Source of the DNA: Candidatus Poribacteria bacterium
GTDB taxonomy: Bacteria; Poribacteria; WGA-4E; WGA-3G
Assembly: GCA_022394755.1 (NCBI GenBank)
Contig: JAGFCA010000029.1
Span: 62,001 to 126,000 of the forward strand
Direction: 5' to 3'
Length of the DNA stretch: 64,000 nt
The notes beneath the pieces are model-generated. The model had not been told where the DNA came from, did not search any database, and worked only from the letters and a program-made list of their open reading frames with translations. The translations under genes were made by a program, and so were the position numbers. Position 1 is the stretch's first letter, and each line of letters opens with the position of its first letter. Shown piece by piece: positions 1 to 16,364 of this stretch.

Positions 1-1491
1 ACCTTTTCCTCTTTTTGGGAATTTTGTGTCTTCTTTCAAATAATTACCCATCGAATTGCGAACATCACTGTGCATTTTGCGTTCAAGGTTAATCATTCCA
101 TCCCTCGCCCTAACATCTACAAAAAATGGATCTTTCTGAGGGGTATAGTCCATCTTTATCCATTCATTGTCATCACCAAGCCGATAATCGACTTTAGAAC
201 GTTCTGTACCACCAAATATATTAACTATGATATCTGTATTTGATGTTTCATCTGATTGAACTTCCCATGGTGCCCATATATTCATTTGATAGTCTGCTGG
301 ACGTCGTGCTGCTTTAAACCTAATTGAATATTTGTTTTCAGTGAAGGTGAAGATACCATACCCATTTGGTGCACCGTCCCGCATCGTGGTGTGGGGAATT
401 CCAACTTCATCCAGTGTGCCTTGCCACCAACTACCCGATGTAGTCGCATGATTATGGTGGTGGTGCGGTTGTTCACCATGCCACCCGTGTTCAGGACCTA
501 CAAATTCATCACGTTGAATGTGTGTATGTGCTGATAAGGATAATGTATTCGGACGATCACCAAGCAGATTCATCAATTTATCCACATCACTCATTTCTTT
601 TAATGGTATATGAAATGACACGACAATAAGCCTATCTTTCGGTACAAAAGCCAAATCGTTTTTTATAAATGTCAGTTGTTTTTCACCAACATGACTGGAA
701 TATGAAGGTCGATTATCAGCATTACGGAAGAACTTAACATTGTCTATATTGATGAAGTGTACCGGACCCCAATCGAATGAATAACAGGTGGGTCCGAAGA
801 CACGTTCGAATGTTTCATCTGCATATTTATCTTCAGTAGCTGCAAAGTTCATGTCGTGGTTACCATATACGTTATACCAAGGTATGCCAACAGTTGACAT
901 GACTTCATTTAATGGTTGAAATAACTCTAATTTATCTCCCACCAAATCACCGAGACTAATACCAAATACAGCCTCAGTTCCAATCACTTCCTCAATAACA
1001 TCGTGTGCTAACCACTCAATTTCCTGCATACTTGTAGGTTGTGTATCCCCAAATACAAGGATTTTAAAGGTATCAGGCTCTTCTTGTTCATAAAGTGGAA
1101 AATCAATCGATTCTGGTAGTGGTCCAGTTGGGGCTACACCTGCATATTTTAAACCATCTGGAGAACCATGGGGCTTATGTATATAATGGAATACAGGAAG
1201 TTGATCTTCATTAACAGGTGTCATATATCCTCTCGGTTTTATGACAAAGATGATCGTGTCATCGTCAACATTTAGAGAATACTCTCCGTTTTCATCTGTT
1301 TCTACAATATCTGTTCCATTCGATACACGGACCCCAGACAGACCATTCTCGTCAACATCTTTTACTTGGTTTTGATTGGAATCTAAATACACAGTTCCGG
1401 TTGCAGTTGTGTTTGCCTCTGCCTGAATACATGAAGCAAGACATGTTAAAATCATTATAAATATGAAGAAATAGTTTATCCTATATATCAT
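1..1491 (-). CDS. Exported calcineurin-like metallophosphoesterase (3' end outside window)
   Basis: The reading frame is open for 497 codons from the ATG at 1491 to the window edge, so the C-terminus is missing. Residues 1-25 form a signal peptide ending near LTCLASC, which could be a lipobox. Residues about 30-90 resemble the beta-sandwich domain that precedes this phosphoesterase type (V.LD.N.N...D..E.GLSGVRVSNG). The catalytic domain shows GDTQ (148-151) and GNHD (210-213), two of the metal-binding motifs of calcineurin-type phosphoesterases. The part near the window edge matches the position of the C-terminal domain of the family. The substrate cannot be told; these enzymes usually hydrolyse phosphomono- or diesters in the periplasm. 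No co-directional neighbour lies close upstream. The family call is firm; the lipoprotein call is weak. Confidence 0.85.
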   Translation of the reverse strand, partial: MIYRINYFFIFIMILTCLASCIQAEANTTATGTVYLDSNQNQVKDVDENGLSGVRVSNGTDIVETDENGEYSLNVDDDTIIFVIKPRGYMTPVNEDQLPVFHYIHKPHGSPDGLKYAGVAPTGPLPESIDFPLYEQEEPDTFKILVFGDTQPTSMQEIEWLAHDVIEEVIGTEAVFGISLGDLVGDKLELFQPLNEVMSTVGIPWYNVYGNHDMNFAATEDKYADETFERVFGPTCYSFDWGPVHFINIDNVKFFRNADNRPSYSSHVGEKQLTFIKNDLAFVPKDRLIVVSFHIPLKEMSDVDKLMNLLGDRPNTLSLSAHTHIQRDEFVGPEHGWHGEQPHHHHNHATTSGSWWQGTLDEVGIPHTTMRDGAPNGYGIFTFTENKYSIRFKAARRPADYQMNIWAPWEVQSDETSNTDIIVNIFGGTERSKVDYRLGDDNEWIKMDYTPQKDPFFVDVRARDGMINLERKMHSDVRNSMGNYLKEDTKFPKRGKG

Positions 1492-1605
1492 CAAAATCTC
1501 CTTATTATTAAAGTAATCTGATATTTCTCAATATTCTTCAGAATTTAATGTTTATCAGTGTTTACTTTTTATTATACTAAAGTTTGGATTTATTTACACA
1601 TAGCA

Positions 1606-2002
1606 CTCCGCTGGAGCAAAGAGACCGATTTTACTGATGCCCTTTTTGATGCTTTATCATCTGTGTTTATACGTCCGCGTAGATTACACATTCTCATGCC
1701 TGAGGCGTGATATGTCTGTAGAAAAAACGTGTTGAAGAAAGATGCACTCCAGAGGAGTGCTATATACATACTAAAGTTTACACATGTCTTGCACATAGCA
1801 CTCCGAAATCAACGGTATGAACGCCTTATGGGCATTCCCCGGGAGTGCAGCGGGTTGTCAATCCACATTCTATAGACATATTGCTCCGCTGGAGCAAAGA
1901 GACCGATTTTACTGATGCCCTTTTCTATACTTTGTGGGTATAGGTTTATAGTCCGTTTCGGTGTCCTCTCCTTACGCCAGAGGTGTGATATGTCTGTAGA
2001 AA
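1606..2002. repeat. Duplicated palindromic repeat locus with TGTAGAAA tails
   Basis: A 41-bp sequence starting CTCCGCTGGAGCAAAGAG occurs identically at 1606-1646 and 1884-1924. Each copy is followed 56-54 bases later by a similar tail, GGCGTGATATGTCTGTAGAA (ending 1724) and GGTGTGATATGTCTGTAGAA (ending 2002). Between them lies a palindrome, GCACTCC-aga-GGAGTGC, at 1744-1760. At 1806-1850 an AATCAACGGTATGAACGCC element recurs inverted at 19.3-19.5 kb. Nothing coding is visible in the 1492-2219 gap. The repeats look like dispersed REP/MITE-type elements. Confidence 0.75.
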
Positions 2003-2219: not shown

Positions 2220-3152
2220 TTAATCTAAACCCCACTCTTTTCGAAGGTCTGCCATCGGTTTATATTTTACATTCTTATTATAGAAATTCCCAAGCCATGT
2301 ACCATCATCTCGGAAGTAAAAACGTTCATCTTTTTCCTCACATGCGAGTTGGTATCGTGTATCAATACTGATACGGTAGCAATCAGAACGATTTGGGGCA
2401 CTACTATGCATCATGTAAAGACCAAAAATTATTACATCACCCGGTTGAAAGTGTGCCGTAGCTAATGTGAATCCGAACTTATCAACCATTTCTCTCGGTT
2501 CAGTACTAAAAACCGCATCTGTTAAATCACGGTCCATATCGGTGGCACCATAGGTTGACTTTAATTGATTATGACGATGTGAATTAAGACAAATAACCAA
2601 TGGACCGTTCTCCAAGTTAATGTCTGTCAATGCACTCCACATCGTATATCGATTTTGTGTACCGCGTCCAACATAAACACTATCATAGTGAAAATGGTTG
2701 TGTCCACCTGTTGCCATACACCGGAGCCACCGTTTATCGAATGTGATTACAGGACCACCAAGGAATTCTTCATAAAATCTCATTGTTTCTTGACTATCTA
2801 CAACATCAAGAATTGGTTTTGCATGTGCCACTTCTGTTTGTCGAAAGAAACTAAATGTACGATTATCATCACTAATGATACCTTGTTCTACAGGTGTATT
2901 CGGTTTAATTCCACCGTTTTTGCCAATTGCTTGTAATGTCCATAGTGCTGCCTTTTCTGCAGCCTCACGGGGATGAAAACCTCGGATAAATAGATAACCG
3001 TCCACATCTATTCTTTGATGTAAGGCATCAATATCATTGAGCAGATGACTTGAATCTGTTAATTCAACTATCTCCTCACCAAAATGAAAATGGTGTTGAC
3101 CAAATTCGAAACGTGTGCCAATGGGTATTTTCTTCGATATATTCAGTGTCAT
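2220..3152 (-). CDS. Phytanoyl-CoA dioxygenase (PhyH) family protein
   Basis: A 310-residue member of the Fe(II)/2-oxoglutarate-dependent PhyH superfamily; known members hydroxylate small organic substrates in the cytoplasm. The metal triad is complete: H155 and D157 in the HFHYD motif and H249 in MMHSSAP, with R260 as the likely 2-oxoglutarate anchor. The double-stranded beta-helix core spans about 140-275. A longer N-terminus than in its neighbours (HFHFGEE, 21-27) is unusual but carries no recognised domain. It is the last gene of the minus-strand run, 59 bp after the preceding PhyH gene. The substrate is unknown. The ATG at 3152 has no strong ribosome-binding site. Confidence 0.85.
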   Translation of the reverse strand: MTLNISKKIPIGTRFEFGQHHFHFGEEIVELTDSSHLLNDIDALHQRIDVDGYLFIRGFHPREAAEKAALWTLQAIGKNGGIKPNTPVEQGIISDDNRTFSFFRQTEVAHAKPILDVVDSQETMRFYEEFLGGPVITFDKRWLRCMATGGHNHFHYDSVYVGRGTQNRYTMWSALTDINLENGPLVICLNSHRHNQLKSTYGATDMDRDLTDAVFSTEPREMVDKFGFTLATAHFQPGDVIIFGLYMMHSSAPNRSDCYRISIDTRYQLACEEKDERFYFRDDGTWLGNFYNKNVKYKPMADLRKEWGLD

Positions 3153-3211
3153 TTATGTGTTTTACAATGTAAAGTAATTATTCATGCTATTAGATTCTTA
3201 GATAAATAGAT

Positions 3212-4024
3212 TTACTGGGGATCACCATTTTCGTATGAGAATATTAAAGGTAGATGTACATCATCTGCTAAGATATCACCAGTCTTTAATTTTACAAACA
3301 CTTCTTCTGGTAATGCACTCTTCTTGCCATTGAATGTCGCATCTTCAGGCATAAACAGCATAGCAAAAGCACGGCGTAGATTTGTTGTCATATTAGGTCC
3401 GGCAGCATGAGCAACTAAGCCACTAATGAAAACGCCATCACCAGCCTTCATTTCAGCTACAAACGGATCAATTCCTGCCCACTCTGGATATTCCTTAAAC
3501 AATTCTCCAACACCAACTTCACCAAGAATTCCACCCACTTCAAAACCACAGCTTTTATGTGTTCCGGGTAAGAAATACAAACACCCATTTTGAATTGTTG
3601 CATCGTCAAGTGCTATCCAAAACATGATTGCTTGGTGTGAATAAAAGGGATCATAAGGATTATCAACATGAAAATTCGTAGGATTTGCCCACGGCTGTTT
3701 TACCATAGCATGGTCATGATATAAACGCACACCTGTTGTTTCAGCCAGATCTGCTGCCATCCTACCTAAATCAGCGTTGAGTATTAATTCCTTAACCCTA
3801 TCATCAGTTTTCCATAGATTCACGCATTGAATAAAGACATTGCTGTAGTAATTGTCTGCACTTTGATAAAGGTTTAAGTCATCACATTCTATGAAATTCT
3901 TGACTGATTCAGTTATAACATCTTGCCATAATGATAATTCTGGTCCTTGTAGAAAATCCTCAATTATGAGAAAGCCATTTTCTTGGTAATAATCAATCTG
4001 ATTAGTTGAAAGTTGGGTATTCAT
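3212..4024 (-). CDS. Phytanoyl-CoA dioxygenase (PhyH) family protein
   Basis: A 270-residue PhyH protein counted from the ATG at 4024. A GTG at 4042 in the same frame would add six residues, but family N-termini usually begin as here (STNQIDYYQENGFLII). The triad is H119 and D121 (NFHVD), H206 (VAHAAGP) and R217/R218 after TTNL. FLPGTHKS (151-158) is the typical strand after the metal motif. It starts close behind the stop of the 4049-4852 PhyH gene, so the two are probably translated from one mRNA. It is only distantly similar to its PhyH neighbours and so probably acts on a different substrate. Confidence 0.85.
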   Translation of the reverse strand: MNTQLSTNQIDYYQENGFLIIEDFLQGPELSLWQDVITESVKNFIECDDLNLYQSADNYYSNVFIQCVNLWKTDDRVKELILNADLGRMAADLAETTGVRLYHDHAMVKQPWANPTNFHVDNPYDPFYSHQAIMFWIALDDATIQNGCLYFLPGTHKSCGFEVGGILGEVGVGELFKEYPEWAGIDPFVAEMKAGDGVFISGLVAHAAGPNMTTNLRRAFAMLFMPEDATFNGKKSALPEEVFVKLKTGDILADDVHLPLIFSYENGDPQ

Positions 4025-4048
4025 ATAGTTATGGTGACTCACTACATA

Positions 4049-4852
4049 TCAATCATAATTGCTCGGTCTATGATCACCAAGGAGTCTCCTTTGACGTGGA
4101 TTTGCTTGGGCAAGTATGTTCTCATCAAACTTGAATTTATTTAAATAGGGAGGATATTTCTGTGTAATCATCCTTTTCGCATAGTGTACCTGCATAAGAT
4201 AGCGTGTTTCATCACTTATATTTGCTGTCCCTCGATGCCATACTTCGCTACGGAATAGCACAACATCACCAGCATTACATAAGATACTTTCTTCAGTTCG
4301 ATTATTCCATTCAGTTGCACCATTAGGTGAACAGCCAGATAAATGACTACCCGGTACAAATTTTGTTGGACCCAACTCCTCATACATATCATTAAGGTAA
4401 TAGTGTGCAGTTGTGATGAAAATAGGTATTTTGACACGAGGGTCATTTCGTACATCTGCTGGAAGACTCATTGGCAGCCAGTCCGTATGTAAACCTTGAT
4501 CTGGTCTTCCTGGACCTGTCAACCATGAATGCATTCCTATACAGTGGCAATCTTCCCCATGAACAGCCTCCACAACCTCAATCACTGGTGACCTATCAAG
4601 ATATTGAAGATACAGTGAATCTCGATTAAATGAGTTGCTGATGAGTTTATGTAAGAACGCATCCCCTTTTTCAAGTGTTTCGTCTCTGTCATGGGACTCA
4701 GGTATTGCTTCTAAACGATCCATTGTGTCTCGTAGAACTGCGATTTCTTGTGAATCAAGTACACTTGGAAAATATACATATCCATCTTTCTCCAAAGCTT
4801 CTACTTGATCTTCTAATGAATTGTATGCAACAAGTGATAGTTCTTTTGCCAT
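4049..4852 (-). CDS. Phytanoyl-CoA dioxygenase (PhyH), paralogue A
   Basis: A 267-residue PhyH protein with a full set of catalytic residues: H122 and D124 (GLHTD), H206 (VWHRGTA) and R217 (DETRYLM). GPTKFVPGSH (161-170) is the canonical family strand. The protein is the same length as, and alignable without gaps to, the product of 7689-8492; most residues are identical, including the C-terminal PRQ.RLLGDH.PSNYD, so the two are a recent duplication. It lies 22 bp downstream of the creatininase-family gene and just upstream of another PhyH gene. The start at 4852 (MAKELSLVAY) matches the start of the paralogue, which supports it. Confidence 0.88.
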   Translation of the reverse strand: MAKELSLVAYNSLEDQVEALEKDGYVYFPSVLDSQEIAVLRDTMDRLEAIPESHDRDETLEKGDAFLHKLISNSFNRDSLYLQYLDRSPVIEVVEAVHGEDCHCIGMHSWLTGPGRPDQGLHTDWLPMSLPADVRNDPRVKIPIFITTAHYYLNDMYEELGPTKFVPGSHLSGCSPNGATEWNNRTEESILCNAGDVVLFRSEVWHRGTANISDETRYLMQVHYAKRMITQKYPPYLNKFKFDENILAQANPRQRRLLGDHRPSNYD

Positions 4853-4874
4853 AAACTATACCCTTTAGTTCTAC

Positions 4875-5768
4875 CTACAAAATGCGTCCTTTTGGAATCC
4901 GTGAATTAGCGTGCCATTGAGAATCTTTAGGTGGTTCAGGATTCGGGGGTTGCATAGATGCAAAATCAGTTAATTTCGGTCTTATCTCTTCTTCCCAAAT
5001 CCCTTCTACATCATCAAAGGTCAATGGTGTAGTATTCGCTCCTTCATTTTGATGTTCAATCAACAATTTCTCTGTTTTATCTCCAAAATGTTCAATAATC
5101 CCTTCAACCATCTTTTCACCAACAAGACGACTTGAAGACTCATTATAGTCACCCATAGCAAAATCAGGTTTTCGTGTGTCATCTTCCGGCATCCTGGACA
5201 TATCTACACAATCTGGGGCAACCGCCCATAGAGCAGAAGTCTCCCCACGACCGGCATGTCCTCCCATACCTTTACCATCTTCAAAATCATCTCTATTAAG
5301 TCCTATACCCATTAGTGAATACAATCGTACACCTACGTGTTGTTGCATAATATCAATTACAATAGGAACATCTTGGTGGTGTGGTCCTGAATGTCCAGAG
5401 AATAGGATTGCACCTTGAAAACCTAAAGCATCCACTGCTCGAATATGATAACACATACTCTTTAGGAACATCCATGGTGGAATGGCTGTTAACCATGTTC
5501 TTTCTTGGTTTATTTTCGCATGTCCCCATGAACCATAACCACTAATCTCATGACAGTGCCAGTAGTAGGGTGGTGCTACAATTCCTCCATGAACTTGTGC
5601 CGCATGAATGCAACACTCATGTGCTCGAATTGCGTCTAAACCCACAGCATTATGCCAACCATGTGGTTCACATAGACCATAAGGTAGATATACAATTGGA
5701 CACTCTTTGAATCCTTCTTCTAATTCATCGGGAAACATTCTTTCCCATTGAACTTTTCTTCCAGACAT
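4875..5768 (-). CDS. Creatininase-family amidohydrolase
   Basis: 297 residues of the creatininase/MftE/FAPy-hydrolase fold, metal-dependent enzymes that open amide or cyclic amidine bonds in the cytoplasm. The metal-site motif GLCEPHGWHN (31-40) supplies E34 and H36, and D45 follows in VGLDAI. The second family signature HSGPHHQD lies near 123 and HAGRGETSA near 170. Real creatininase cannot be distinguished from other family members by sequence alone. A good ribosome-binding site (AAAGGA) precedes the ATG. It sits within a set of five PhyH genes in one direction, which suggests that the hydrolase and the oxygenases process one N-containing compound; that link is inference. Confidence 0.85.
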   Translation of the reverse strand: MSGRKVQWERMFPDELEEGFKECPIVYLPYGLCEPHGWHNAVGLDAIRAHECCIHAAQVHGGIVAPPYYWHCHEISGYGSWGHAKINQERTWLTAIPPWMFLKSMCYHIRAVDALGFQGAILFSGHSGPHHQDVPIVIDIMQQHVGVRLYSLMGIGLNRDDFEDGKGMGGHAGRGETSALWAVAPDCVDMSRMPEDDTRKPDFAMGDYNESSSRLVGEKMVEGIIEHFGDKTEKLLIEHQNEGANTTPLTFDDVEGIWEEEIRPKLTDFASMQPPNPEPPKDSQWHANSRIPKGRIL

Positions 5769-5871
5769 TATAATCCTTTCAATTCTGATTCATTACCAAT
5801 GGTTTGCTGGCGACCCCTTACATTTTATAAAAAAGATCTTAATAACAGGATTTACACACACTATAGATTTA

Positions 5872-7608
5872 TTAACGTTTCTCACCGGGTTTACGATATT
5901 TTGATGAATAACTGTCGCCTTCAGCATCGTATGACACAAAAACTTCACCATCTTTTACTATCAGACGTGGAACAGTTCTGTGTCGTCCATCTCTTTCAGG
6001 ACCACGCATTACAGCAAATTGTTCCTCTGTCATGTCTTCCACCATATCACCCCATCGGTCTTGTGGATCAACGACACCTCCACCCCAATTTACATTTTTG
6101 GATTGATACTTGATTAATACACCACGTCTTGGAGTTGGATTTTTCCATGCTAAAGCCCCATGTGTACAGCCACCATCCATAAAGAAGAGTACATCCCCTG
6201 CCTTCATGACTGGTTGAACAACCAAACCCATTGTATCATCACAAGTACGGATACCACGAGGCATTGAATACTGAGTCTTATGTGATCCAGGTACACATGC
6301 AAATCCACCTAAGCCCGGTTGAACATCACGCAATTGCCAAGTAATAGTTACCGTTTCAGCATAACTACGTCCATTCTTAAAATCGTAACCTCTTGATGGA
6401 CTCATTGGTTCGTTTCCATCATGTAGTGAATGTCCTGATGTACCTTCAACAGCACAGAATACAGTTGCACCACCACAGCGATAGCCACTGCCTCCCATCC
6501 AGTTCATTCTCTGAATAACTTCAGGATGAGCAATCATCTTACGGAATGGTTGATTATACGGATCAGGGAGATCTAATAAACCGGATAGAAGTGGTCGTCC
6601 TGTGCCTGCTTGACTTACTGATCCACCAGCCAGTTCTGATCCAACGACAATACGATCTTGGAACTTATCAACGGCTTCATTAGCTTCAGCAAGCCATTGT
6701 TCATCCATTAAACCACGGACAACAAGATAACCGTTTAGATCCCAAAAATAGAATTCTTTCTCATCAATTCCAGAGTTAGGATCACGTGTATAATATGATG
6801 GATGTAAAACTGTCGGGTCATCCTCTACCCAAGTTTTTTCTCCATCCGTATTAATGACAGGTGGAGGATTTGACCCTTTAAAACCGGGAACATACATAAC
6901 TGCTTTTTGTGCTTCAGCTGCTTCATCTGACCATCGGGGTAATGATTCAGTTTCAGATTGTGGTCCCTCTGGATTAGATTGGATTGCTGCACGCGCTGCA
7001 TACTTGTAGGACAATAAACGTTTCGGTTTTTCTTTCCATGGACGTACACCTTGAAGCGTAGTTGTAGCTACTAAGAAAAGATCTCCAGCTTTTAGGGAAG
7101 GTTGGATTACAAGACCCATATCATCCGCCCCTGTGCTCAAATCATCAGGTGTTGGTACATTACTCTTATGGCTTGCTTGAACAACGACCAATCCACCATC
7201 ATCATCTACAACATCTTCCAACACCCATATTGCTTTTACGCTCTGACAACTTCTTCTATCTTTTTGAATACGATATGCAAGGGAGGGATTTCTCGGCTCA
7301 TCACCACCCTCAAGTGATATACTTGTTTCGCCATCATTATAACCTAATAGTGAGGGTGCTTGATCTAAACGAAAACCGTGTCCAATTATCTGATTCAAAT
7401 ACCACACCAGTGTTGGATGGACAAGTAGGTCGCGAAAGAATTTCCTATTTGTATCTGATCCACCTAATAGATTTCCATTTCCTGATATTGCATCCAAAGC
7501 ACTGTTTAGGGATAATACTTCTTCCTCACTTAATACACTGGGGATGTGTAGGTAACCTGCCACATCAAATGCATAATTTTCTTCATTTGTCATAATTTCA
7601 TTATCCAT
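5872..7608 (-). CDS. Double PhyH-domain fusion protein
   Basis: 578 residues holding two PhyH-like domains in tandem (about 12-210 and 285-505), joined by a linker with a tyrosine/proline-rich end. The halves align at several landmarks: GYLHIPSVL/GYLVVRGLM, LEGGDEP/LHDGNEP, GGLVVVQASH/GGFACVPGSH and KAGDLFLV/KAGDVLFF. The N-terminal half has E100 where the first iron histidine is expected and Q186 at the distal histidine, so it probably does not bind iron. The C-terminal half has H396 and H483 plus R494/R495, but the residue two after H396 is G398 instead of Asp/Glu. About 73 residues after 505 contain no known domain. Ordinary PhyH proteins are half this length. A role as an oxygenase or halogenase is open. 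Confidence 0.82.
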   Translation of the reverse strand: MDNEIMTNEENYAFDVAGYLHIPSVLSEEEVLSLNSALDAISGNGNLLGGSDTNRKFFRDLLVHPTLVWYLNQIIGHGFRLDQAPSLLGYNDGETSISLEGGDEPRNPSLAYRIQKDRRSCQSVKAIWVLEDVVDDDGGLVVVQASHKSNVPTPDDLSTGADDMGLVIQPSLKAGDLFLVATTTLQGVRPWKEKPKRLLSYKYAARAAIQSNPEGPQSETESLPRWSDEAAEAQKAVMYVPGFKGSNPPPVINTDGEKTWVEDDPTVLHPSYYTRDPNSGIDEKEFYFWDLNGYLVVRGLMDEQWLAEANEAVDKFQDRIVVGSELAGGSVSQAGTGRPLLSGLLDLPDPYNQPFRKMIAHPEVIQRMNWMGGSGYRCGGATVFCAVEGTSGHSLHDGNEPMSPSRGYDFKNGRSYAETVTITWQLRDVQPGLGGFACVPGSHKTQYSMPRGIRTCDDTMGLVVQPVMKAGDVLFFMDGGCTHGALAWKNPTPRRGVLIKYQSKNVNWGGGVVDPQDRWGDMVEDMTEEQFAVMRGPERDGRHRTVPRLIVKDGEVFVSYDAEGDSYSSKYRKPGEKR

Positions 7609-7688
7609 TCGTGTCTCCTATAAGAAATATATGGTCGATAAATTCTAATTTAAGGAATAAGTAAAGACATCATTAGTAGGCTATCACA

Positions 7689-8492
7689 TCAATCGTAATT
7701 ACTTGGACCGTGGTCACCAAGGAGTCTTTTCTGACGTGGGTTGGCTTGGTCAAGTATTGTTTCATCAAATTGGAATTTGTTCAAATAAGGAGGATATTTC
7801 TGTGTAATCATCCGTTTAGCATAATGTACCTGTAATAAATATCGTGTATCATCTGATGTATTGGCAGAACCACGATGCCATACCTCACTACGGAAAAGGA
7901 CAACATCCCCAGCATTACATATAATACTTTCTTCAGTTCTATTATTCCACTCTGTCGCTCCGTTTGGTGAACATCCAGAGTAATGACTTCCCGGTACAAA
8001 CTTTGTCGGACCTAATTCTTCATACATATCATTAAGATAGTAATGTGCAGTGGTAATAAAAATAGGAACTTTCACTCGTGGATCTTGACGGATATCTGAT
8101 GGGAGTGAAATTGGTAAGTAATCGGTGTGTAACCCCTGATCCGGTCTTCCAGGTCCTGTTATCCATGATTGCATTCCAATGCAATGACAATCTCCACCAT
8201 GAGTTTCTTCCGCAACTTCAATGATTGGAGATTTATCAAGAAATTCGAGATAAAGAGGATCCCGATTAAATGAATTATTGATGATTTTATTGACAAATGA
8301 ACCACCATTTTCAGGGGTTTGGTTACGGTCATAACATTCAGGAATAGTATCTAATCTATCCATGGTAGAACGTAATACATCAATCTCATCGGAATCAAGA
8401 ACATTTGGGAAATAGACATAACCATCCTTTTCCAATGCTTCAACTTGATCTTCTAATTCTGTATAAGCAACAAGTGAGAGTGCTTTTGCCAT
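7689..8492 (-). CDS. Phytanoyl-CoA dioxygenase (PhyH), paralogue B
   Basis: 267 residues, the sister copy of the 4049-4852 product with the same length and catalytic set: H122 and D124 in GLHTD, H206 in VWHRGSA and R217. Differences from the sister are concentrated at residues 45-110 (for example NQTPENGGSFVNKI against DETLEKGDAFLHKL), near the part that usually lines the substrate entrance, so the copies may differ in substrate. It follows the toroid-protein gene by 44 bp and precedes the double-PhyH gene by 80 bp. A ribosome-binding site (AAGGAGAA) lies before the ATG at 8492. Confidence 0.88.
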   Translation of the reverse strand: MAKALSLVAYTELEDQVEALEKDGYVYFPNVLDSDEIDVLRSTMDRLDTIPECYDRNQTPENGGSFVNKIINNSFNRDPLYLEFLDKSPIIEVAEETHGGDCHCIGMQSWITGPGRPDQGLHTDYLPISLPSDIRQDPRVKVPIFITTAHYYLNDMYEELGPTKFVPGSHYSGCSPNGATEWNNRTEESIICNAGDVVLFRSEVWHRGSANTSDDTRYLLQVHYAKRMITQKYPPYLNKFQFDETILDQANPRQKRLLGDHGPSNYD

Positions 8493-8536
8493 AATAATTC
8501 TCCTTAATCACATTCCAATAATAGTTATCTCTAAAT

Positions 8537-10351
8537 TCAATCATCAATCGACCATGTGCAATTAATATTTGAGTCAATATAAAACTGTTTTAATGCAGGT
8601 TTATCAAACCATAGTTGCATTGCTTTATTTACAATATGTCCAACACTATTAACCTTAAGGTATAAGCCACCAGCAGTCCATTCTGGAATCATACTATACT
8701 GTCCTGTTTGTGCTGCATATATACTAAGTAATGCTAACGGTTCCATCGCATCAAGGTTAGCAGTCTTATGATTATCCTGCAAGAGTTCAGATACTGATTT
8801 ACCTTCATGACCCTCTTGAAGTTCAGTTTTATCCATTACACGACTATGAAAAACGAAATCGTCCTCAAGAGTAAATAGACCACTATCAGAATGTTGTCTT
8901 CCTTGTAGTAAGTTATCACCAATTTTCTCTGCCATTGCCAAGAATTCTGGTTTGGGGTCAACACGATATAGATCTACCAAAGCGAAAATATAGGCTGGTT
9001 CCAAGGCTGTAGTGTTAGTGTTTAAATCTGGGTCTAAACTAATGTCGATCCCAATGTCTCCAATATCAAAATGTATTAACATGGTTCGAAGGTAGTCTCT
9101 AAATTCATTTCTACCACCAGATATACGATATCCACGTGCACAAACTGAGGTAAACAGTGGAGTAATGTATTGAGGTAGAAATGCCCCACCCTCCTTTGCT
9201 CCAAAGTATAACTTGGCATCTCGAAATGGTCCTTCAATACGATAATTTGTTAGGTATGTACCATCAGTTATGATACTCTTAAGTGTATTATTTTCTTGAT
9301 CATAGGAGGCATCCAAAAAACCGATAATGTGCTGTTCAAAAGCATCTTTAATGTGTGCCATTTCACCGACACGACCATTCTTTTCAGCATTTTCCACTAT
9401 TGTTAACATACCCATCATCTGTGTAATGGCATGGTTCAGAAGATTCCCTACATAAAGTCTGGGTTCAGTTGCCTGAGGATATTTCTTACCAAATATATTT
9501 AACCCTCGTTTAGAACTTTGTGGATGTACCAAGAATGGTAGTATACCAGTGTCTGGATTACGTTGTCTTATAATCAAGTTCAAAAGACGTTCTGCCCAAA
9601 TTCGTGGGGCTTCCTCATGTCTCTGGTACCCCAAACTATATGCAGCATAAGCCATATCCAATGCGACACTTATAAATGAAAGATCTCCGGTTATTATAGG
9701 TTGTTTATAACCACTCCACGGTCTGTTCCATGTATTATCATGATCAACATTCTTATGAAAATCACCATGTCGATTATAGTGTAATGCATCCCAATCCTTA
9801 ATATTTGCTTCCCAAATACCTTTAATTAACATTTCACATCGATCAGAATCTACAGCATTTAGGAATTCCCATAGCGGATACACATCCTCTATTTCATGGA
9901 CAACACCTTTCATACCATATCTATTTCCTGTAACAAGATCAACATAACCATGTCCACCCCAATGCAAAACACCACTTTCAGTATACCAATAATGGTTGAA
10001 CATATAATCGGTTGCTTCACCTGCAGCACTCACAAATTTTGCATCACCAGTGAATTGACTCAAGGAAGTAAGTAATCGGATTAAATTCTGTTGATTTTGA
10101 AAAAAACACCAAACAGTCGGTTTCGGTTCTGTTCCAGATTTATAGGAAGTCATTGATCGAGGGGCTATTAAATGGTCAATATCGAGGCAATCAGCGAACA
10201 ATGGCATGTCTTTTCCGCTATATCTGTCTCTACCATGGTTTATGGCAGTTTCTGCGAAAAGACTGGCAGCTTTCAAGAATCTGTTATCCTCTATTTCATC
10301 CGAGCTGAATGTGTTGTTTCCAATCCAACGATCAATACGATTAGTATTCAT
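8537..10351 (-). CDS. Six-hairpin (alpha/alpha-toroid) protein, possible carbohydrate-active enzyme
   Basis: 604 residues without signal peptide or membrane segment. The pattern of helical hairpins with aromatic and acidic loops (WCFFQNQQNL at about 86-95, HWGGHGYVDL at about 136-145, KGVVHEIEDVYP at about 154-165) resembles the six-hairpin glycosidase-like fold that includes polysaccharide lyases, epimerases and unsaturated glycuronyl hydrolases. The clusters of D, E, H and W in these loops could form an active site, but no exact family motif is recognised. The ATG overlaps the stop of the upstream membrane-protein gene by four bases (ATGA), so the two are translationally coupled. A role on a glycan or glycoside is inferred only from fold. 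Confidence 0.6.
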   Translation of the reverse strand: MNTNRIDRWIGNNTFSSDEIEDNRFLKAASLFAETAINHGRDRYSGKDMPLFADCLDIDHLIAPRSMTSYKSGTEPKPTVWCFFQNQQNLIRLLTSLSQFTGDAKFVSAAGEATDYMFNHYWYTESGVLHWGGHGYVDLVTGNRYGMKGVVHEIEDVYPLWEFLNAVDSDRCEMLIKGIWEANIKDWDALHYNRHGDFHKNVDHDNTWNRPWSGYKQPIITGDLSFISVALDMAYAAYSLGYQRHEEAPRIWAERLLNLIIRQRNPDTGILPFLVHPQSSKRGLNIFGKKYPQATEPRLYVGNLLNHAITQMMGMLTIVENAEKNGRVGEMAHIKDAFEQHIIGFLDASYDQENNTLKSIITDGTYLTNYRIEGPFRDAKLYFGAKEGGAFLPQYITPLFTSVCARGYRISGGRNEFRDYLRTMLIHFDIGDIGIDISLDPDLNTNTTALEPAYIFALVDLYRVDPKPEFLAMAEKIGDNLLQGRQHSDSGLFTLEDDFVFHSRVMDKTELQEGHEGKSVSELLQDNHKTANLDAMEPLALLSIYAAQTGQYSMIPEWTAGGLYLKVNSVGHIVNKAMQLWFDKPALKQFYIDSNINCTWSIDD

Positions 10352-11739
10352 ACAGTCTCCAATTTGCTTGTTTCTGTGTCAGGTTTACTCAATAACAGAT
10401 AAATACCATATCCAACAACAGCAAATCCGAAAAGAGTAAATGGCATTTGCCATAGTAAATAACTCATGTGGGTATGTATAAAAGAATGACTTTTAAAGAT
10501 GACAAACCAGGATAATGGTGCTAAAAAAGAAAACCATGTCGCTATAATTAAGGCAATACTTCGTTGTCGTGAAGTTTCTGTCCTTTGCTTAGTTCGTATA
10601 ATAGCTACAACTGACATGAAAATAAACATAACAATTAGATAACTATAACGAATTTTGAATAAATGCTTTGTAATAAAAGATTCATTCATCTTGAAATAGT
10701 TATTAAAATCAAAGTATACTCCGTTGATATAGGTCTTAACAACTCCAAACGTACCTGCTTTTAAACTTGCTCCATAAATTGGTGGAAAATCTTCTGCTTC
10801 CCCATGTGTTCTTTTGCCTATGGAATAAAATACATGATCAATTCCATCCATGAAACCGCCCTTAACAGACCCTATCTGAATACATAACATCATGAGACTT
10901 AGAAAAATTGCGACACCACAACCAATACCTGTACCAATAGAATATTTCAACCACTGTTTCTTGTTCCAATTATCAATAATACCATAATATACAAATGGAA
11001 CGACCATCATTACCAATGTTGTTGTTATATATTCATAACCATTAATAAAACACTTAATAGATACTGAAATGAAAATTAATACACTAAACCAGATAAAATG
11101 TCTATTTGTAGAATCTTTGTAACTTTTGAGAAAATACAAAACCGCAATCATTGGTAAGTAGAATCCCCATGTACTCCACCATAGGTTTTTACCGAAGACA
11201 GTTAGCCAGTGAGATAATACTGCAGAAGCTAAGACAAAAGTGCCTGCTAAACCTCCAAACTCACTATAAAACCATACTATAATTAATGTCAATGTAATTG
11301 CAGTTAACAGGGAGGTTAGAATATAGAAAAACCAGAATTTTGCTATTGATGACACAGGAATCAGTTTATCAAGCAAACTGAAAATCATACCTTGACCACC
11401 AGGTTGTGAATTGTATGTTTTGAAATTCTCAAATGAATAATTGTACAAATAAGCGTTATATTGTGGACCTCTTGCAGCAGTTGGTATCCATTCTTGATCT
11501 GCTTTTTTCGCTGTTCCCCAACCATTCAAACCCCCTGCTGAGAAGATGCCATCTTGACGAGACTTTACCATCCGTCCCATGACATGGCTTTCAGTGTCCT
11601 TCTGGTGGGTGTCAAACCATTTTTGATCTGCTACCTTCCATAAATTTAGGAAAAAACCAAAAAACAGTAATATTATAGACACACTCCATATCAAGGATAG
11701 TCTAAATTTTGGACAATTTATTAGATCTTTTATAGACAT
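10348..11739 (-). CDS. Polytopic membrane protein of unknown function
   Basis: 463 residues. About ten strongly hydrophobic segments can be seen, the first at 12-35 and the last at 425-450, and a long soluble loop of about 80 residues (40-120) follows the first. This arrangement, with an aromatic-rich loop between TM1 and TM2, is like that of GT39/GT83-type lipid-linked glycosyltransferases or other polytopic envelope proteins, but no DE or other catalytic motif could be fixed. It is the first gene of the minus-strand run and overlaps the toroid-protein gene by four bases. Coupling to a potential carbohydrate enzyme supports an envelope-glycan role; this is inference. Confidence 0.65.
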   Translation of the reverse strand: MSIKDLINCPKFRLSLIWSVSIILLFFGFFLNLWKVADQKWFDTHQKDTESHVMGRMVKSRQDGIFSAGGLNGWGTAKKADQEWIPTAARGPQYNAYLYNYSFENFKTYNSQPGGQGMIFSLLDKLIPVSSIAKFWFFYILTSLLTAITLTLIIVWFYSEFGGLAGTFVLASAVLSHWLTVFGKNLWWSTWGFYLPMIAVLYFLKSYKDSTNRHFIWFSVLIFISVSIKCFINGYEYITTTLVMMVVPFVYYGIIDNWNKKQWLKYSIGTGIGCGVAIFLSLMMLCIQIGSVKGGFMDGIDHVFYSIGKRTHGEAEDFPPIYGASLKAGTFGVVKTYINGVYFDFNNYFKMNESFITKHLFKIRYSYLIVMFIFMSVVAIIRTKQRTETSRQRSIALIIATWFSFLAPLSWFVIFKSHSFIHTHMSYLLWQMPFTLFGFAVVGYGIYLLLSKPDTETSKLETV

Positions 11740-12004
11740 GCTATACCAGTTTTATTGTCAATCATGTATATTTACTACTTTAATCTAAGATTGTAAATTT
11801 ACTATTTAATAACCGTTATCTATTCAAATCCATTATACCTATTACAAATTTCTCAGTCAATATGATTCAACTTATAGGTATGTCATTTTTTTACCTGAAT
11901 TTATTGTATATTACCTATTTCCTTGATATAATTCCATTAATCTAACAAAATGCTATTTGCTTGTATTTATTATCATTCACTCAGAATTCATTATATATCC
12001 TAAA

Positions 12005-12961
12005 ATGTCAATCATTCAAGCATTAGAATCAGATAATCTGACCGAATTACAGACTATACCTAAGACAGATTTTCATTGCCATGCATTGCTTAGTACAAGA
12101 AGGAAGAATGTAGAGGAATGGATTGGCAAGTCCTTAGCAAAACCACCATACAAAATGAATGGACTTGAGGGTATGATGGATTACGTGAGTGTAACATTAA
12201 CACCACATTTAATGCATAATAAAGGTTTTGAATTCGTTGCAGTCTCTGCGATTGAAGATGCAATAAAAGATGGTGTTGTTATCCTTGAAATAAGTTTTGA
12301 CATCCGATTGGTCAATTTCTATCAAGAGGGCTTAAATTCTCTGCAGACATTTATAAAATCGTTGATAACGTCTTTTCATGGAAAGATTGATTTACGTCCT
12401 GAACTGGGTATTGCTCGTGATTGTGTTAAGGATCAACAACTGATGAATTTGGCATTTCAAGCTATTGAATTAGAGTTATTCAAATCAATTGATTTATATA
12501 GTCACGAAGAAGCATGTACTCCTGAAGAGGCTAAGGTTTTATATACAATAGCACAAAAAGCAGGAATGAAACTGAAAGCACATGTCGGTGAGTTTAAGGA
12601 TGCTGAAGAAATTCGTAGAACTGTTGAGCTATTGGAACTGGATGAAGTACAACACGGTATAGCAGCTACAGAGTCAGTTGAAGTTATGAAATGGTTGTCT
12701 GAAAACAAAATCCAATTAAACGTATGTCCAACAAGCAATGTGATGTTGGGTGGTGTAAAAAACATTGAAGTACATCCTATACGTATATTATATGACTATG
12801 GTATCCCAGTTACGATTAATACAGACGACCTAATGATTTTTGATCAGAGTGTCTCTGATGAATATCGTAACCTTTATCAAACTGGTATTTTTAGTAGTAA
12901 AGAATTGGAATGTATTCGAAATACATCCCTTTCGCTTAGTCAATTAAGTAAAGATAAATAA
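12005..12961 (+). CDS. Adenosine/AMP deaminase-family hydrolase
   Basis: 318 residues of the metal-dependent deaminase superfamily, which removes the amino group of adenosine, adenine or related purines in the cytosol. Visible motifs in order: FHCH (H24, H26) for the metal, LYSHE, KAHVGE, LDEVQHGIAA, NVCPTSN and INTDD, the last holding the Asp pair of the active site. The ATG at 12005 gives a family-like N-terminus; a TTG at 11957 in frame would add 16 hydrophobic residues of no known role. The gene stands alone and faces away from the minus-strand run. Adenosine versus adenine or a modified base cannot be decided. Confidence 0.85.
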   Translation: MSIIQALESDNLTELQTIPKTDFHCHALLSTRRKNVEEWIGKSLAKPPYKMNGLEGMMDYVSVTLTPHLMHNKGFEFVAVSAIEDAIKDGVVILEISFDIRLVNFYQEGLNSLQTFIKSLITSFHGKIDLRPELGIARDCVKDQQLMNLAFQAIELELFKSIDLYSHEEACTPEEAKVLYTIAQKAGMKLKAHVGEFKDAEEIRRTVELLELDEVQHGIAATESVEVMKWLSENKIQLNVCPTSNVMLGGVKNIEVHPIRILYDYGIPVTINTDDLMIFDQSVSDEYRNLYQTGIFSSKELECIRNTSLSLSQLSKDK

Positions 12962-13053
12962 TCAAATATTAACATTGCCAGTTATGATAAATGACATTTA
13001 GTAATCATTGTATACGTAAGTTCAATTTGCATAGATATTCTTCATTATTTGAG

Positions 13054-13138
13054 ACGCTCTTGAGTCCCGTAGGGACGAAATGTCTATAGAAAACGCCGAA
13101 CAAACGCTCTTGAGTCCTGTAGGGACGAAATGTCTATA
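13054..13138 (+). repeat. Tandem pair of palindromic repeat units, period 50 bp
   Basis: Two copies (13054-13088 and 13104-13138) differ at one of 35 bases. Each holds the hairpin GAGTCC-cgta-GGGAC followed by the tail GAAATGTCTATA. They lie in the gap between the deaminase and the CehA-like gene. Related pairs occur at 19010-19088 and 33997-34100. Confidence 0.8.
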
Positions 13139-13227
13139 ATATAATGTCCTAAATCCGTGAAAATAAAAAAACAATTCGTAACTGGCACAAGTCGTAATAT
13201 TTAGAAGACTACATATTTGGAGGAACT

Positions 13228-15561
13228 ATGAGAGGGGAATTATTCAATCGTAGAATTTATAAGTCATTCATTAATAATATCTTTACATCACTTTTATCTG
13301 TTATTGTCCTGTCATTAATAACAATATTACCGTCTTTTTCTGATGAACATGATTTAGTGACAAATGTTGAATTTCAACCATTGGTATCAGCTACTGAAAG
13401 ACTAATTGAAGCGTTAGATTATGTTGGAGCACCTCTTGCAGATGAAGACCAAGCATCTATAAAGACTGCATCCATTTCAAATAACCATGAGCAAGCAGTA
13501 ATTGATATTCAAAATACTCTCGATAAGTACTGTATAGCTGAAGTACATATTAACCCAGAGAGTCGAGTAAAGGTAACTGAAGGAATTACTAATAAAGAAC
13601 TAATGCAAAGTGGTTGGCGGGTTTTTTTAATAAAGGTTCATAATGAAGCAGGTGTAACTGCTCCACTTGCAGCAGAAAGTCCAAATGCTGAACCTATATA
13701 TAAACGTTCCACTGGAAGTGCTGAACCAGAAAAAACTATTAAACAGAGTGATTTACCCCATCGATTTCTTGAAATGCAGATGTATAACAAACCTCCATTA
13801 AAAGAGGGTTTATCTGGATTGGAATTAGAATATAGAATTATTCAAATCTTCAGTCGAGATTCTGGTAAGAGAGAGGCAACACTTAGTTTTAATGTCGGAC
13901 AAGGAACACAGGATATCGGGTTCAGGAGTGAAGTGCCTATACTCTTCAATTGTCTACCTGCTGTAGAGGTGACATTTAATGTATTAGACTTTGATGGGAA
14001 CCCAACAACATGCTCATTTACAATTCGAGATACATCTAATAGAGTGTATCCAATGAGAGGAAGAAGATTAGCACCTGATTTCTTCTTTCATAACCAGATT
14101 TATAGAAAAGATGGTGAATCCGTTTTACTTCCACCAGGAGATTATACAGTCTCGTATACACGTGGTCCTGAGTATTTGATAAAGTCAAAAGCAATTACTG
14201 TACCAAATGCAGAGAAGCACGTAGAAAGCTTCAAATTGGAGAGATGGATACATATAGCTGCAGAAGGGTGGCGTTCAGGGGATCATCATGTTCATGCTGC
14301 TGGATGTTCACATTATGAAAGTCCAACCGAAGGTGTTACACCTGAAGATATGATGCGACATATTCTCGGTGAAGATCTGAATGTCGGGTGTGTCCTTTCA
14401 TGGGGACCGTGTTGGTATTTTCAGAAACAATTTTTTGATGGTAAAGTACATGAACTTTCTACAGATGACTATGTGATGCGTTACGATGTAGAAGTGTCAG
14501 GATTTCCATCGTCACATACTGGACACCTTTCTTTATTAGGACTTACTGAGGATGACTATAATGGGGTAGAACGTATAGAAGACTGGCCGAGTTGGGATTT
14601 ACCAGTATTACAATGGGCAAAAGAACAAGGCGCAGTAACAGGGTTTAGTCATAGCGGATGGGGATTAACTGTAGAAGGGGATCAACTCCCAAATTACAAT
14701 ATGCCTCCATTTGACGGTATCGGCGCGAATGAATATATCGTTGATGTTGTCCATGATGTAGTTGACTTCATCTCCACTGTGGATACTCCAGCGATATGGG
14801 AACTTAACATCTGGTATCATACACTTAATTGCGGTTTCCGAACACGTATAAGCGGTGAAACTGATTTTCCATGTATATATGGTGAACGTGTAGGACTTGG
14901 TCGTATTTACGTAAAGATGGATGACGGACCACTTGAATTTGATACCTGGGTTGAAGGTTTACGTGATGGACGTTCTTATGTTGGAGATGGAAAGACACAC
15001 TTACTTGATTTCACTGTAGGTGGTGTTCCTGTTGGTGAAAAAGTCGGTAATGGTGAAATTAGCCAATTGGATTTAGAAAAACCAAATACAGTTAAAATCA
15101 CAGCAAATTTTGCTGGATTATTACCTGAAACACCTAATCATGAAATAAAGAATAGACCTTTAGATCATCAACCGTATTGGGATATAGAACGAGCAAGAAT
15201 TGATGATACACGGACTGTTCCAATTGAATTAATTGTCAATGGAATGGTAGAAGGTAGACAAGAAGTAAGAGCAGACGGTAAGATTGTCCCAATTGAATTT
15301 AATGTCGAAATTAGTCAATCCAGTTGGGTTGCATTACGTATATTCCCATCATCACATACAAATCCTGTATTTGTAATTGTTGATGAGAAACCTATTCGTG
15401 CAAGTCGAAAAAGTGCCCAATGGTGTTTGGATGCTGTGGATGTGTGTTGGAATCAAAAGGTTAACAGAATTCGAGAAGAGGAACGTGATGCAGCGAAAAA
15501 AGCCTATGATGTAGCAAGAGAAACATATCAGAGAATTCTTGATGAAACTACTATGGACTAA
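13228..15561 (+). CDS. Exported CehA/McbA-family metallohydrolase
   Basis: 777 residues with a signal peptide (about 1-37, ending SFSDEHD). Residues 40-345 are beta-rich and without a clear family match. The catalytic part begins at WRSGDHHVHAAG with D352, H353, H354 and H356, the metal-binding DxHxH-type motif of the CehA/McbA group within the PHP-like hydrolases; GFSHSGWG near 473 and GETD near 547 are further family landmarks. Known members split aryl carbamates or related esters, but most are uncharacterised. A perfect GGAGG sits eight bases before the ATG. The last 40 residues are charged and coiled-coil-like. It is followed 35 bp later by a PhyH gene. Confidence 0.82.
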   Translation: MRGELFNRRIYKSFINNIFTSLLSVIVLSLITILPSFSDEHDLVTNVEFQPLVSATERLIEALDYVGAPLADEDQASIKTASISNNHEQAVIDIQNTLDKYCIAEVHINPESRVKVTEGITNKELMQSGWRVFLIKVHNEAGVTAPLAAESPNAEPIYKRSTGSAEPEKTIKQSDLPHRFLEMQMYNKPPLKEGLSGLELEYRIIQIFSRDSGKREATLSFNVGQGTQDIGFRSEVPILFNCLPAVEVTFNVLDFDGNPTTCSFTIRDTSNRVYPMRGRRLAPDFFFHNQIYRKDGESVLLPPGDYTVSYTRGPEYLIKSKAITVPNAEKHVESFKLERWIHIAAEGWRSGDHHVHAAGCSHYESPTEGVTPEDMMRHILGEDLNVGCVLSWGPCWYFQKQFFDGKVHELSTDDYVMRYDVEVSGFPSSHTGHLSLLGLTEDDYNGVERIEDWPSWDLPVLQWAKEQGAVTGFSHSGWGLTVEGDQLPNYNMPPFDGIGANEYIVDVVHDVVDFISTVDTPAIWELNIWYHTLNCGFRTRISGETDFPCIYGERVGLGRIYVKMDDGPLEFDTWVEGLRDGRSYVGDGKTHLLDFTVGGVPVGEKVGNGEISQLDLEKPNTVKITANFAGLLPETPNHEIKNRPLDHQPYWDIERARIDDTRTVPIELIVNGMVEGRQEVRADGKIVPIEFNVEISQSSWVALRIFPSSHTNPVFVIVDEKPIRASRKSAQWCLDAVDVCWNQKVNRIREEERDAAKKAYDVARETYQRILDETTMD

Positions 15562-15596
15562 TAAGAATGTGCTACTATATCTCTAAGGAGTAATTA

Positions 15597-16364
15597 ATGA
15601 AATTATCATCTGAACAGATAAAAAAATTTAAGCAAGTGGGTTATTTAAAAATAGATGAACAAGTCATTGATGACAATCACCTAAATGTATTACGCGATCA
15701 TTACGATCAACAGTTTGCAAAAAGACGGAATACTGAAGGTGAAGGTATGCGTAACCTTGCAATCGTTGAAGATTCTGAAAACCATGATGACGAAGAATCT
15801 ACTGATGAGATGCTTCAAATCATGGAGATGTGGCGAATTGATGAAGAATACAAGAAGCTACTCTATCACAAACCAATGTTGGATATTGTTGAAAGTCTAA
15901 TTGGAGAAAATATACAGTTGTTTCATGACCAGGCACTCTACAAACCCGCTTATCACGGTGGAGAAGTATTTTGGCATCAGGATAATGCATATTGGCAGTG
16001 TCAACCGGCAGATCTTGTCAGTATTTGGTTAGCACTTGATGACGCAGATGAAGAAAACGGATGTATGAATGTTATTCCAGGAAGTTATTTAAAGGGATTA
16101 TCTTCACACAGACGTGCTGAATCAGAAAAAGGAAAATTACCTGCATTATTACAAGTGGATGCAGATGTAGATCGTTCAGTTCCAGTTCCTGTACGTGCGG
16201 GACATGTCATGGTACATCATTGTATGACGCTACATCAAACAAACCGTAACCATTCATCTCGTGATCGACGTGCATTAGCAATTCATTATATGCCATCTGG
16301 AACAAAAAATCGTGAAGGTGTTGTGATGAAAGACAATTTACTTCTACGTGGTAGTTTAGTTTAG
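15597..16364 (+). CDS. Phytanoyl-CoA dioxygenase (PhyH) family protein
   Basis: 255 residues with H127 and D129 (FWHQD), H213 (TLHQTN) and R224/R225, so the iron triad and the 2-oxoglutarate anchor are intact. NVIPGSY (158-164) is the usual core strand. An acidic loop NHDDEESTDE (62-71) is unlike the other PhyH proteins here. An AAGGAG precedes the ATG by seven bases. Position 35 bp behind the exported metallohydrolase suggests co-transcription, though the two act in different compartments. The substrate is unknown. Confidence 0.86.
   Translation: MKLSSEQIKKFKQVGYLKIDEQVIDDNHLNVLRDHYDQQFAKRRNTEGEGMRNLAIVEDSENHDDEESTDEMLQIMEMWRIDEEYKKLLYHKPMLDIVESLIGENIQLFHDQALYKPAYHGGEVFWHQDNAYWQCQPADLVSIWLALDDADEENGCMNVIPGSYLKGLSSHRRAESEKGKLPALLQVDADVDRSVPVPVRAGHVMVHHCMTLHQTNRNHSSRDRRALAIHYMPSGTKNREGVVMKDNLLLRGSLV

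What the first reader, a model, noticed from the sequence alone, without database searches (positions are those of the whole stretch)
2220..11739. Single-direction cluster of five PhyH proteins, a creatininase, a toroid protein and a membrane protein
Seen: eight genes on one strand in 9.5 kb, with gaps of about 20-100 bases and two overlaps or near-overlaps. Known: PhyH enzymes oxidise small molecules; creatininase-type enzymes open amides or amidines. Inference: this is a pathway that oxidises and hydrolyses one N-containing compound, perhaps attached to a sugar (toroid fold) and imported or formed at the membrane. I know of no described pathway of this gene content.
Basis: partly seen in the sequence, partly recalled or inferred. 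Interest (0 to 1): 0.6.

Follow-up and report, generated by a model that had tools for sequence, protein, structure and literature searches.

The report
Sponge-symbiont lyase and multi-oxygenase gene cluster
Eight adjacent genes in a sponge-dwelling Poribacterium, most of them kept as neighbours in dozens of related genomes, probably make enzymes that oxidise and cut apart an acidic-sugar compound, a combination I found no description of, whose true substrate is still unknown.

Summary
In detail: eight same-strand ORFs at 2220-11739 (gaps 59, 6, 22, 103, 80 and 44 nt, then a 4-nt overlap). They encode five PF05721 (PhyH) proteins, one PF02633 (creatininase-family) protein, one PL2 pectate-lyase-family protein (the "toroid") and a 9-TM protein with no known family. 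The genome is a sponge-type Candidatus Poribacterium with about 117 PhyH genes, so PhyH genes alone mean little here. This run is nevertheless its longest, and chance rarely gives one as long (P about 0.0006).

I count 25 other genomes with at least five of the seven families within about 25 kb. The usual order elsewhere is E-D-H-G-C-C-B on one strand. Gene A joins only in the window's own genus.

The N-compound reading is not supported. D lacks the aligned E122, W154 and W174 of creatininase. G keeps the PL2 metal site and catalytic arginine but has E for the substrate-binding lysine. Best reading: a Poribacteria-specific cluster that oxidises and beta-eliminates a modified uronate-type glycoside. 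The substrate is unknown. E is a two-domain PhyH with a dead N-domain and a halogenase-like HxG...H C-domain. Novelty: new variant built from known families.

The parts
10348..11739 (-). H: first gene of the run; 463-aa membrane protein with about 9 TM segments and an invariant D48-T-E50 after TM1; no known family
   Evidence: ORF; no Pfam/NCBIfam match; 21-member alignment; hydropathy; weak GT-C structural resemblance (E 0.16 to ALG9, model pLDDT 46)
8537..10351 (-). G: PL2-family (PF06917) lyase-like protein, no signal peptide seen; start overlaps the end of H by 4 nt
   Evidence: 275 bits PF06917; PDB 6ojk, 5a29, 2v8i at E about 1e-44; metal site H134/E153/H195 and base R194 conserved 27/27, K132 replaced by E155 in 26/27
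7689..8492 (-). F: PhyH oxygenase (HxD...H), tandem paralogue of C (82% identical)
   Evidence: F-type and C-type copies largely separate in the tree
5872..7608 (-). E: two-domain PhyH-like protein; N-domain lacks metal ligands, C-domain has H396-x-G398 ... H483; nearest solved relative HygX
4875..5768 (-). D: creatininase-fold metallohydrolase (PF02633), E34/H36/D45 conserved; not a creatininase by residue test
4049..4852 (-). C: PhyH oxygenase (HxD...H), paralogue of F
3212..4042 (-). B: PhyH oxygenase (HxD...H); best solved relatives SnoK, EvdO2, human PHYH, PHYHD1
2220..3152 (-). A: PhyH oxygenase (HxD...H); best solved relative 1-deoxypentalenic acid 11-beta hydroxylase; joins the cluster only in the window's genus
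1..1494 (-). Calcineurin-like phosphoesterase (PF16370 family), cut by the window edge; in relatives it follows A by 3-10 nt, here 725 nt away
   Evidence: family f32; the gap holds two copies of a dispersed repeat
11957..12961 (+). Divergent neighbour: adenosine-deaminase-family protein; divergent ADA/H pair also in G030 and G040
13228..15561 (+). Divergent neighbour: CehA/McbA-family metallohydrolase
   Evidence: NF038032 284 bits; also beside ADA and H in G040

Best explanation
The eight genes are one co-transcribed, Poribacteria-specific cluster for processing a modified acidic-sugar (uronate-type) compound, most likely taken from the sponge matrix. Proposed mechanism: canonical PhyH oxygenases (B, C, F, and A in this genus) hydroxylate or oxidatively O-dealkylate sugar positions. 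The two-domain PhyH protein E does a further oxygen-dependent step with an unusual HxG...H iron site. The PL2-type lyase G then cleaves the glycosidic bond next to a uronate by metal-assisted beta-elimination. The creatininase-fold metallohydrolase D opens a cyclic product such as a lactone or a 1,3-diketo ring. The membrane protein H acts on a lipid- or membrane-bound form. Shown: gene content, compact co-directional layout, conserved neighbourhood, intact PL2 and PhyH catalytic residues, D not a creatininase. Inferred: one transcript, catabolic direction, order of steps, the reaction of every enzyme, and the substrate.
For: Tight same-strand layout with a 4-nt overlap. Conserved neighbourhood across two genera, co-directional in the usual order E-D-H-G-C-(SodC)-C-B; in another family of the order C-B is still adjacent, followed by a DUF6785 membrane protein. 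G is full-length homologous to PL2 lyases. Residues that PMC10992409 gives as the YePL2A metal site (H109, E130, H172) and base (R171) are H134, E153, H195 and R194, identical in 27/27 sequences. K132, which binds substrate in YePL2A, is E155 in 26/27 and R272 is K in 24/27, pointing to a substrate other than polygalacturonate. Family neighbours in relatives fit sugar-acid breakdown: SGSH-type sulfatases, enolase-superfamily proteins, GH32. PhyH relatives act on sugars: EvdO2 and HygX are the second-best solved relative of B and the best of E (orthosomycin oligosaccharide oxygenases, PMC8234114), and a Poribacterial PhyH enzyme removes 2'-O-methyl from ribose (PMC12709175). Poribacteria were already proposed to degrade the host proteoglycan matrix using carbohydrate, sulfate and uronic-acid genes (PMC8546597).
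Against: No PhyH protein here can be given a substrate; all score far below every NCBIfam equivalog. The sulfatase and DUF6785 proteins found beside the cluster in relatives have no close counterpart in this genome (best 35% and 49%), so they are not obligatory parts. Poribacterial carbohydrate genes were reported as not highly expressed in one sponge (PMC8546597). If H is a GT-C transferase, a biosynthetic reading is as natural. No transcript or metabolite data exist.
Confidence: 0.48

Rival explanations
1. The cluster makes or tailors a glycoconjugate or secondary metabolite. H is a GT-C glycosyltransferase, the PhyH proteins are tailoring oxygenases (as in orthosomycin pathways), and G is an editing lyase.
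For: H has an invariant DTE motif after TM1, and the best structural matches of its model include GT-C enzymes: ALG9, Pmt4, AftA. B, A and E are nearest in the PDB to natural-product oxygenases: SnoK, EvdO2, 1-deoxypentalenic acid hydroxylase, HygX.
Against: The H model is poor (mean pLDDT 46, no match below E 0.001). No cytoplasmic glycosyltransferase, NRPS/PKS or activation enzyme is among the eight genes. Relatives put sulfatases and enolase-superfamily proteins beside the cluster, which suits breakdown.
Confidence: 0.25
2. One reading: a pathway that oxidises and hydrolyses a nitrogen compound such as creatinine, a guanidine or an N-methylated amine.
For: D has the creatininase fold with E34/H36/D45 conserved. 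A sponge can supply creatinine to symbionts (PMC8546597).
Against: D lacks residues aligned with creatininase E122, W154 and W174 and scores 36.7 bits against a cut-off of 235. No creatinase, aminotransferase, amidase or N-transporter is in the run. Its usual partner G is a uronate-lyase homologue.
Confidence: 0.1
3. Modified-nucleoside salvage: a PhyH enzyme removes 2'-O-methyl and the divergent adenosine-deaminase-family protein acts next.
For: PHYHD1-type PhyH enzymes, one from Poribacteria, demethylate 2'-O-methyl nucleosides (PMC12709175). B matches PHYHD1 (46 bits). The ADA/H divergent pair is kept in the genus.
Against: The ADA-family gene lies on the other strand and was not seen in the neighbourhood in the second genus. 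It does not explain G, D or H. B is no nearer to PHYHD1 than to SnoK, EvdO2 or PHYH.
Confidence: 0.09
4. No shared pathway: PhyH genes are so numerous in Poribacteria that they pile up beside unrelated genes.
For: About 117 PhyH genes, and runs of two to four occur elsewhere.
Against: The specific orthologous groups, not just any PhyH, stay together in dozens of genomes through much local reshuffling.
Confidence: 0.08

Closest known systems
Polysaccharide lyase family 2 (YePL2A, YePL2B, PelW)
   Same: Full-length homology (E about 1e-44), same metal-site and catalytic-arginine residues
   Different: Substrate lysine K132 replaced by Glu, R272 by Lys in most copies; scores 119 against 1000 for the PelW equivalog; neighbours are PhyH oxygenases instead of pectin genes
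Phytanoyl-CoA dioxygenase family (PF05721): EvdO2, SnoK, PHYHD1/FJS, HygX
   Same: Fold family and, in A, B, C and F, the HxD...H iron motif
   Different: All far below every characterised equivalog; E is a fused pair with a dead N-domain and HxG...H C-domain
Creatininase family (PF02633): creatininase, MftE, IolN
   Same: Fold family and E34/H36/D45 metal ligands
   Different: No E122/W154/W174 counterpart; 36.7, 22.8 and 28.3 bits against cut-offs of 235, 172 and 245
Polysaccharide utilisation loci
   Same: A lyase gene in a compact operon-like run; sulfatases and enolase-superfamily genes adjacent in relatives
   Different: No SusC/SusD among the eight genes; five PhyH oxygenases instead

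Membership tests
Polysaccharide lyase family 2 (G) | Sequence homology over the (alpha/alpha)7 domain | tested here: met
   PF06917 275 bits (cut-off 26.6); PDB 2v8i residues 8-463 aligned
Polysaccharide lyase family 2 (G) | Metal site His109, Glu130, His172 and base Arg171 | tested here: met
   H134, E153, H195, R194 in 27/27 sequences
Polysaccharide lyase family 2 (G) | Lys132 and Arg272 of the polygalacturonate enzymes | tested here: not met
   E155 in 26/27; K290 in 24/27: family member, probably another substrate
Creatininase (TIGR04448) (D) | Score over the curated equivalog cut-off | tested here: not met
   36.7 against 235 bits
Creatininase (D) | Glu122 and tryptophans 154 and 174 | tested here: not met
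   Aligned positions are Gly/other in the D profile; the role of these residues in creatininase is from memory
Creatininase-fold metallohydrolases PF02633 (D) | E-x-H ... D metal motif and domain score | tested here: met
   79 bits against 31; E34, H36, D45, H126 invariant
Fe(II)/2OG PhyH oxygenase (A, B, C, F) | HxD ... H iron ligands | tested here: met
Fe(II)/2OG PhyH oxygenase (E) | HxD ... H iron ligands | tested here: not met
   N-domain lacks both histidines; C-domain is H396-x-G398 (A in some) ... H483
Fe/2OG halogenase (E) | HxG/A ... H motif | tested here: met
   motif definition from PMC10947486. AspH has HxG and is not a halogenase, so the motif alone is not decisive
Fe/2OG halogenase (E) | Match to the chlorinating-enzyme model TIGR01762 | tested here: not met
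   No match for E
[quoted passage not shown]
   Only a 46-bit similarity to PHYHD1
GT-C glycosyltransferase (H) | GT-C fold with acidic motif in the first outer loop | tested here: inconclusive
   DTE motif invariant; model pLDDT 46; best match ALG9 E 0.16
SusC/D-type polysaccharide utilisation locus | SusC/SusD pair | tested here: not met
   No such domain among the eight proteins

The most novel reading that the evidence does not exclude
A previously undescribed route of glycan use in sponge symbionts: several dedicated PhyH oxygenases oxidatively strip or modify sugar substituents (for example O-methyl groups) of a host uronate glycan so that a re-specified PL2 lyase and a creatininase-fold hydrolase can dismantle it. 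E, with an HxG...H iron site beside a dead PhyH domain, would be a new type of oxygenase or halogenase. This would give the puzzling PhyH expansion of Poribacteria a carbohydrate function.
Probability: 0.2. Interest if true: 0.68.

Novelty: new variant of a known kind. Interest (0 to 1): 0.45.

Why it matters
[quoted passage not shown] A neighbourhood that ties specific PhyH groups to a lyase with a known reaction type gives a concrete entry point: assay the lyase, find its product, then test the oxygenases on it. It would also bear on how abundant sponge symbionts feed.

Tried and rejected
PDB profile search with H: nothing. Pfam on 21 H homologues: nothing consistent. Sigma-70 promoter and terminator scan: no more hits than shuffles, so not used. 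McCulloch 2015 (HygX) and Kamke 2013 (glycobiome) are not held. Considered and rejected: true creatininase; pectin as substrate (K132/R272 not kept, and no pectin genes in the run); a SusC/D-type locus; A as a constant member; the sulfatase and DUF6785 proteins as obligatory parts.
Full report
What is there. In transcription order they are H (membrane, 463 aa), G (604), F (267), E (578), D (297), C (267), B (276) and A (310). Gaps, in coordinate order, are 59, 6, 22, 103, 80 and 44 nt; G starts 4 nt inside H. Pfam names A, B, C, E and F as PhyH, D as creatininase family, and G as PF06917, the PL2 pectate-lyase family; H has no family.

The organism. Named relatives are all Candidatus Poribacteria. 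The host genome (5.19 Mb, 228 contigs) has about 117 PhyH genes, which agrees with the published expansion of this family in the phylum (PMC3909097). PhyH genes therefore carry little information by their number. Still, the window has the longest run in the genome, and five or more in a row occurs in 0.06% of random placements. The paralogous pair C/F (82%) makes this test optimistic.

Is the neighbourhood conserved? I searched 85 genomes of the phylum with seven of the proteins and tabulated positions (counts for C include both C- and F-type copies). D-E lie within 30 kb in 29/32 genomes that have both, D-H 29/32, G-H 32/44 (32 of 33 on one contig), C-G 32/35, E-H 38/47, B-C 19/24. From that table I count 25 other genomes with at least five of the seven families within about 25 kb, among them five genomes whose cluster lies on one chromosome-size contig (G080-G084). 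In the second genus the usual order is E-D-H-G-C-(SodC)-C-B on one strand, followed by a DUF6785 membrane protein and an enolase-superfamily protein, with sulfatases near. In another family of the order, C-B-DUF6785 is kept, with A and G on the same contig about 21 and 36 kb away (G025). The window is thus a compact, rearranged version. A is adjacent to C/F only in the window's genus; elsewhere it is on another contig or megabases away.

The PL2 protein G. It aligns with PL2 lyases over nearly the whole catalytic domain (E about 1e-44). By the review PMC10992409 the YePL2A metal site is H109/E130/H172, the base R171, R272 is also involved in catalysis and K132 binds substrate. In G these are H134, E153, H195 and R194, invariant in 27 sequences, but E155 (26/27) and K290 (K in 24/27). 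So the chemistry is probably kept and the substrate probably changed. No hydrophobic N-terminal or TM segment is seen, so it should act in the cytoplasm on an imported, short substrate.

The creatininase-family protein D. E34, H36 and D45 are invariant. Aligned with creatininase structures, E122 falls on Gly and W154/W174 are not kept (the importance of these residues is from my own knowledge). It fails the creatininase, MftE and IolN equivalogs. It is a metallohydrolase of unknown substrate.

The PhyH proteins. A, B, C and F have the usual HxD...H ligands. E has two PhyH halves: the first lacks both histidines; the second reads LHDG (or LHDA)...THG, that is HxG/A...H, in all orthologues examined. 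Its best solved relative is HygX; that alignment covers the first half of E. HygX itself reads LHGG at what looks like the same place, which I could not confirm structurally. HxG/A is the motif of Fe/2OG halogenases, but the hydroxylase AspH also has HxG (PMC10947486), so halogenation is only a possibility. A census of this genome found 121 PhyH domains, 96 with HxD; most of the rest keep the distal His but lack the carboxylate (alignment of that group is rough).

The tandem pair. A tree of 43 C/F sequences puts the C-type copies in one supported group of 19, with F-type copies outside it. The duplication is thus older than the split of the two genera, although the deeper forks are poorly supported.

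The membrane protein H. About nine TM segments, invariant DTE after TM1. The AlphaFold model is poor, but its best structural matches include GT-C enzymes. I treat GT-C as a lead only; there is no evidence that it is a transporter.

How it may work. The steps are set out in the best explanation: oxidise (B, C, F, A, E), eliminate (G), open a ring (D), with H at the membrane. The gene layout and catalytic residues are shown; one transcript, the catabolic direction and the substrate are inferred. A biosynthetic reading is the main rival. The nitrogen reading, modified-nucleoside salvage and plain coincidence are less likely.

Novelty. Every domain except H is known. The combination and its conservation in Poribacteria were not found in the papers that could be searched; most subscription papers are not held, so this is not proof of absence. 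I rate it a new variant of a known kind with moderate interest: the neighbourhood is real, the substrate unknown.

Noticed in passing
window 1590-2002: Two copies (278 bp apart, 86-88% alike in their conserved blocks) of a dispersed repeat of about 127 nt; eight matches in the genome at 77-100% identity. They lie between A and the phosphoesterase gene, which abut (3-10 nt) in relatives, so the repeat may have split the operon.
   Followed up: partly
own genome, 121 PhyH domains (window and loci L136-L215): About a fifth of the PhyH domains lack the HxD carboxylate (LHGG, LHCA, HNG and similar) but keep the distal His: a large HxG/A/S-type group in one sponge symbiont.
   Followed up: partly
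window 11957-16364: The divergent run ADA - CehA/McbA - PhyH faces H; ADA beside H recurs in G030 and G040 with a PhyH gene, and CehA in G040.
   Followed up: partly
L037:15988-17964, L076:14822-16741: DUF6785/DUF6784 membrane proteins (16 matches in the window's genome) follow the C-B pair in two families of the order; a candidate uptake protein family worth a look.
   Followed up: no
L036:11101-13299: A sigma-54 activator with an N-terminal Rieske domain plus GAF and PAS domains beside the cluster in some relatives: an unusual possible redox-sensing regulator.
   Followed up: no
L038:13625-14200, L090:12226-12801: A Cu/Zn superoxide dismutase gene sits between the C and F PhyH genes in many relatives but not in the window.
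   Followed up: no
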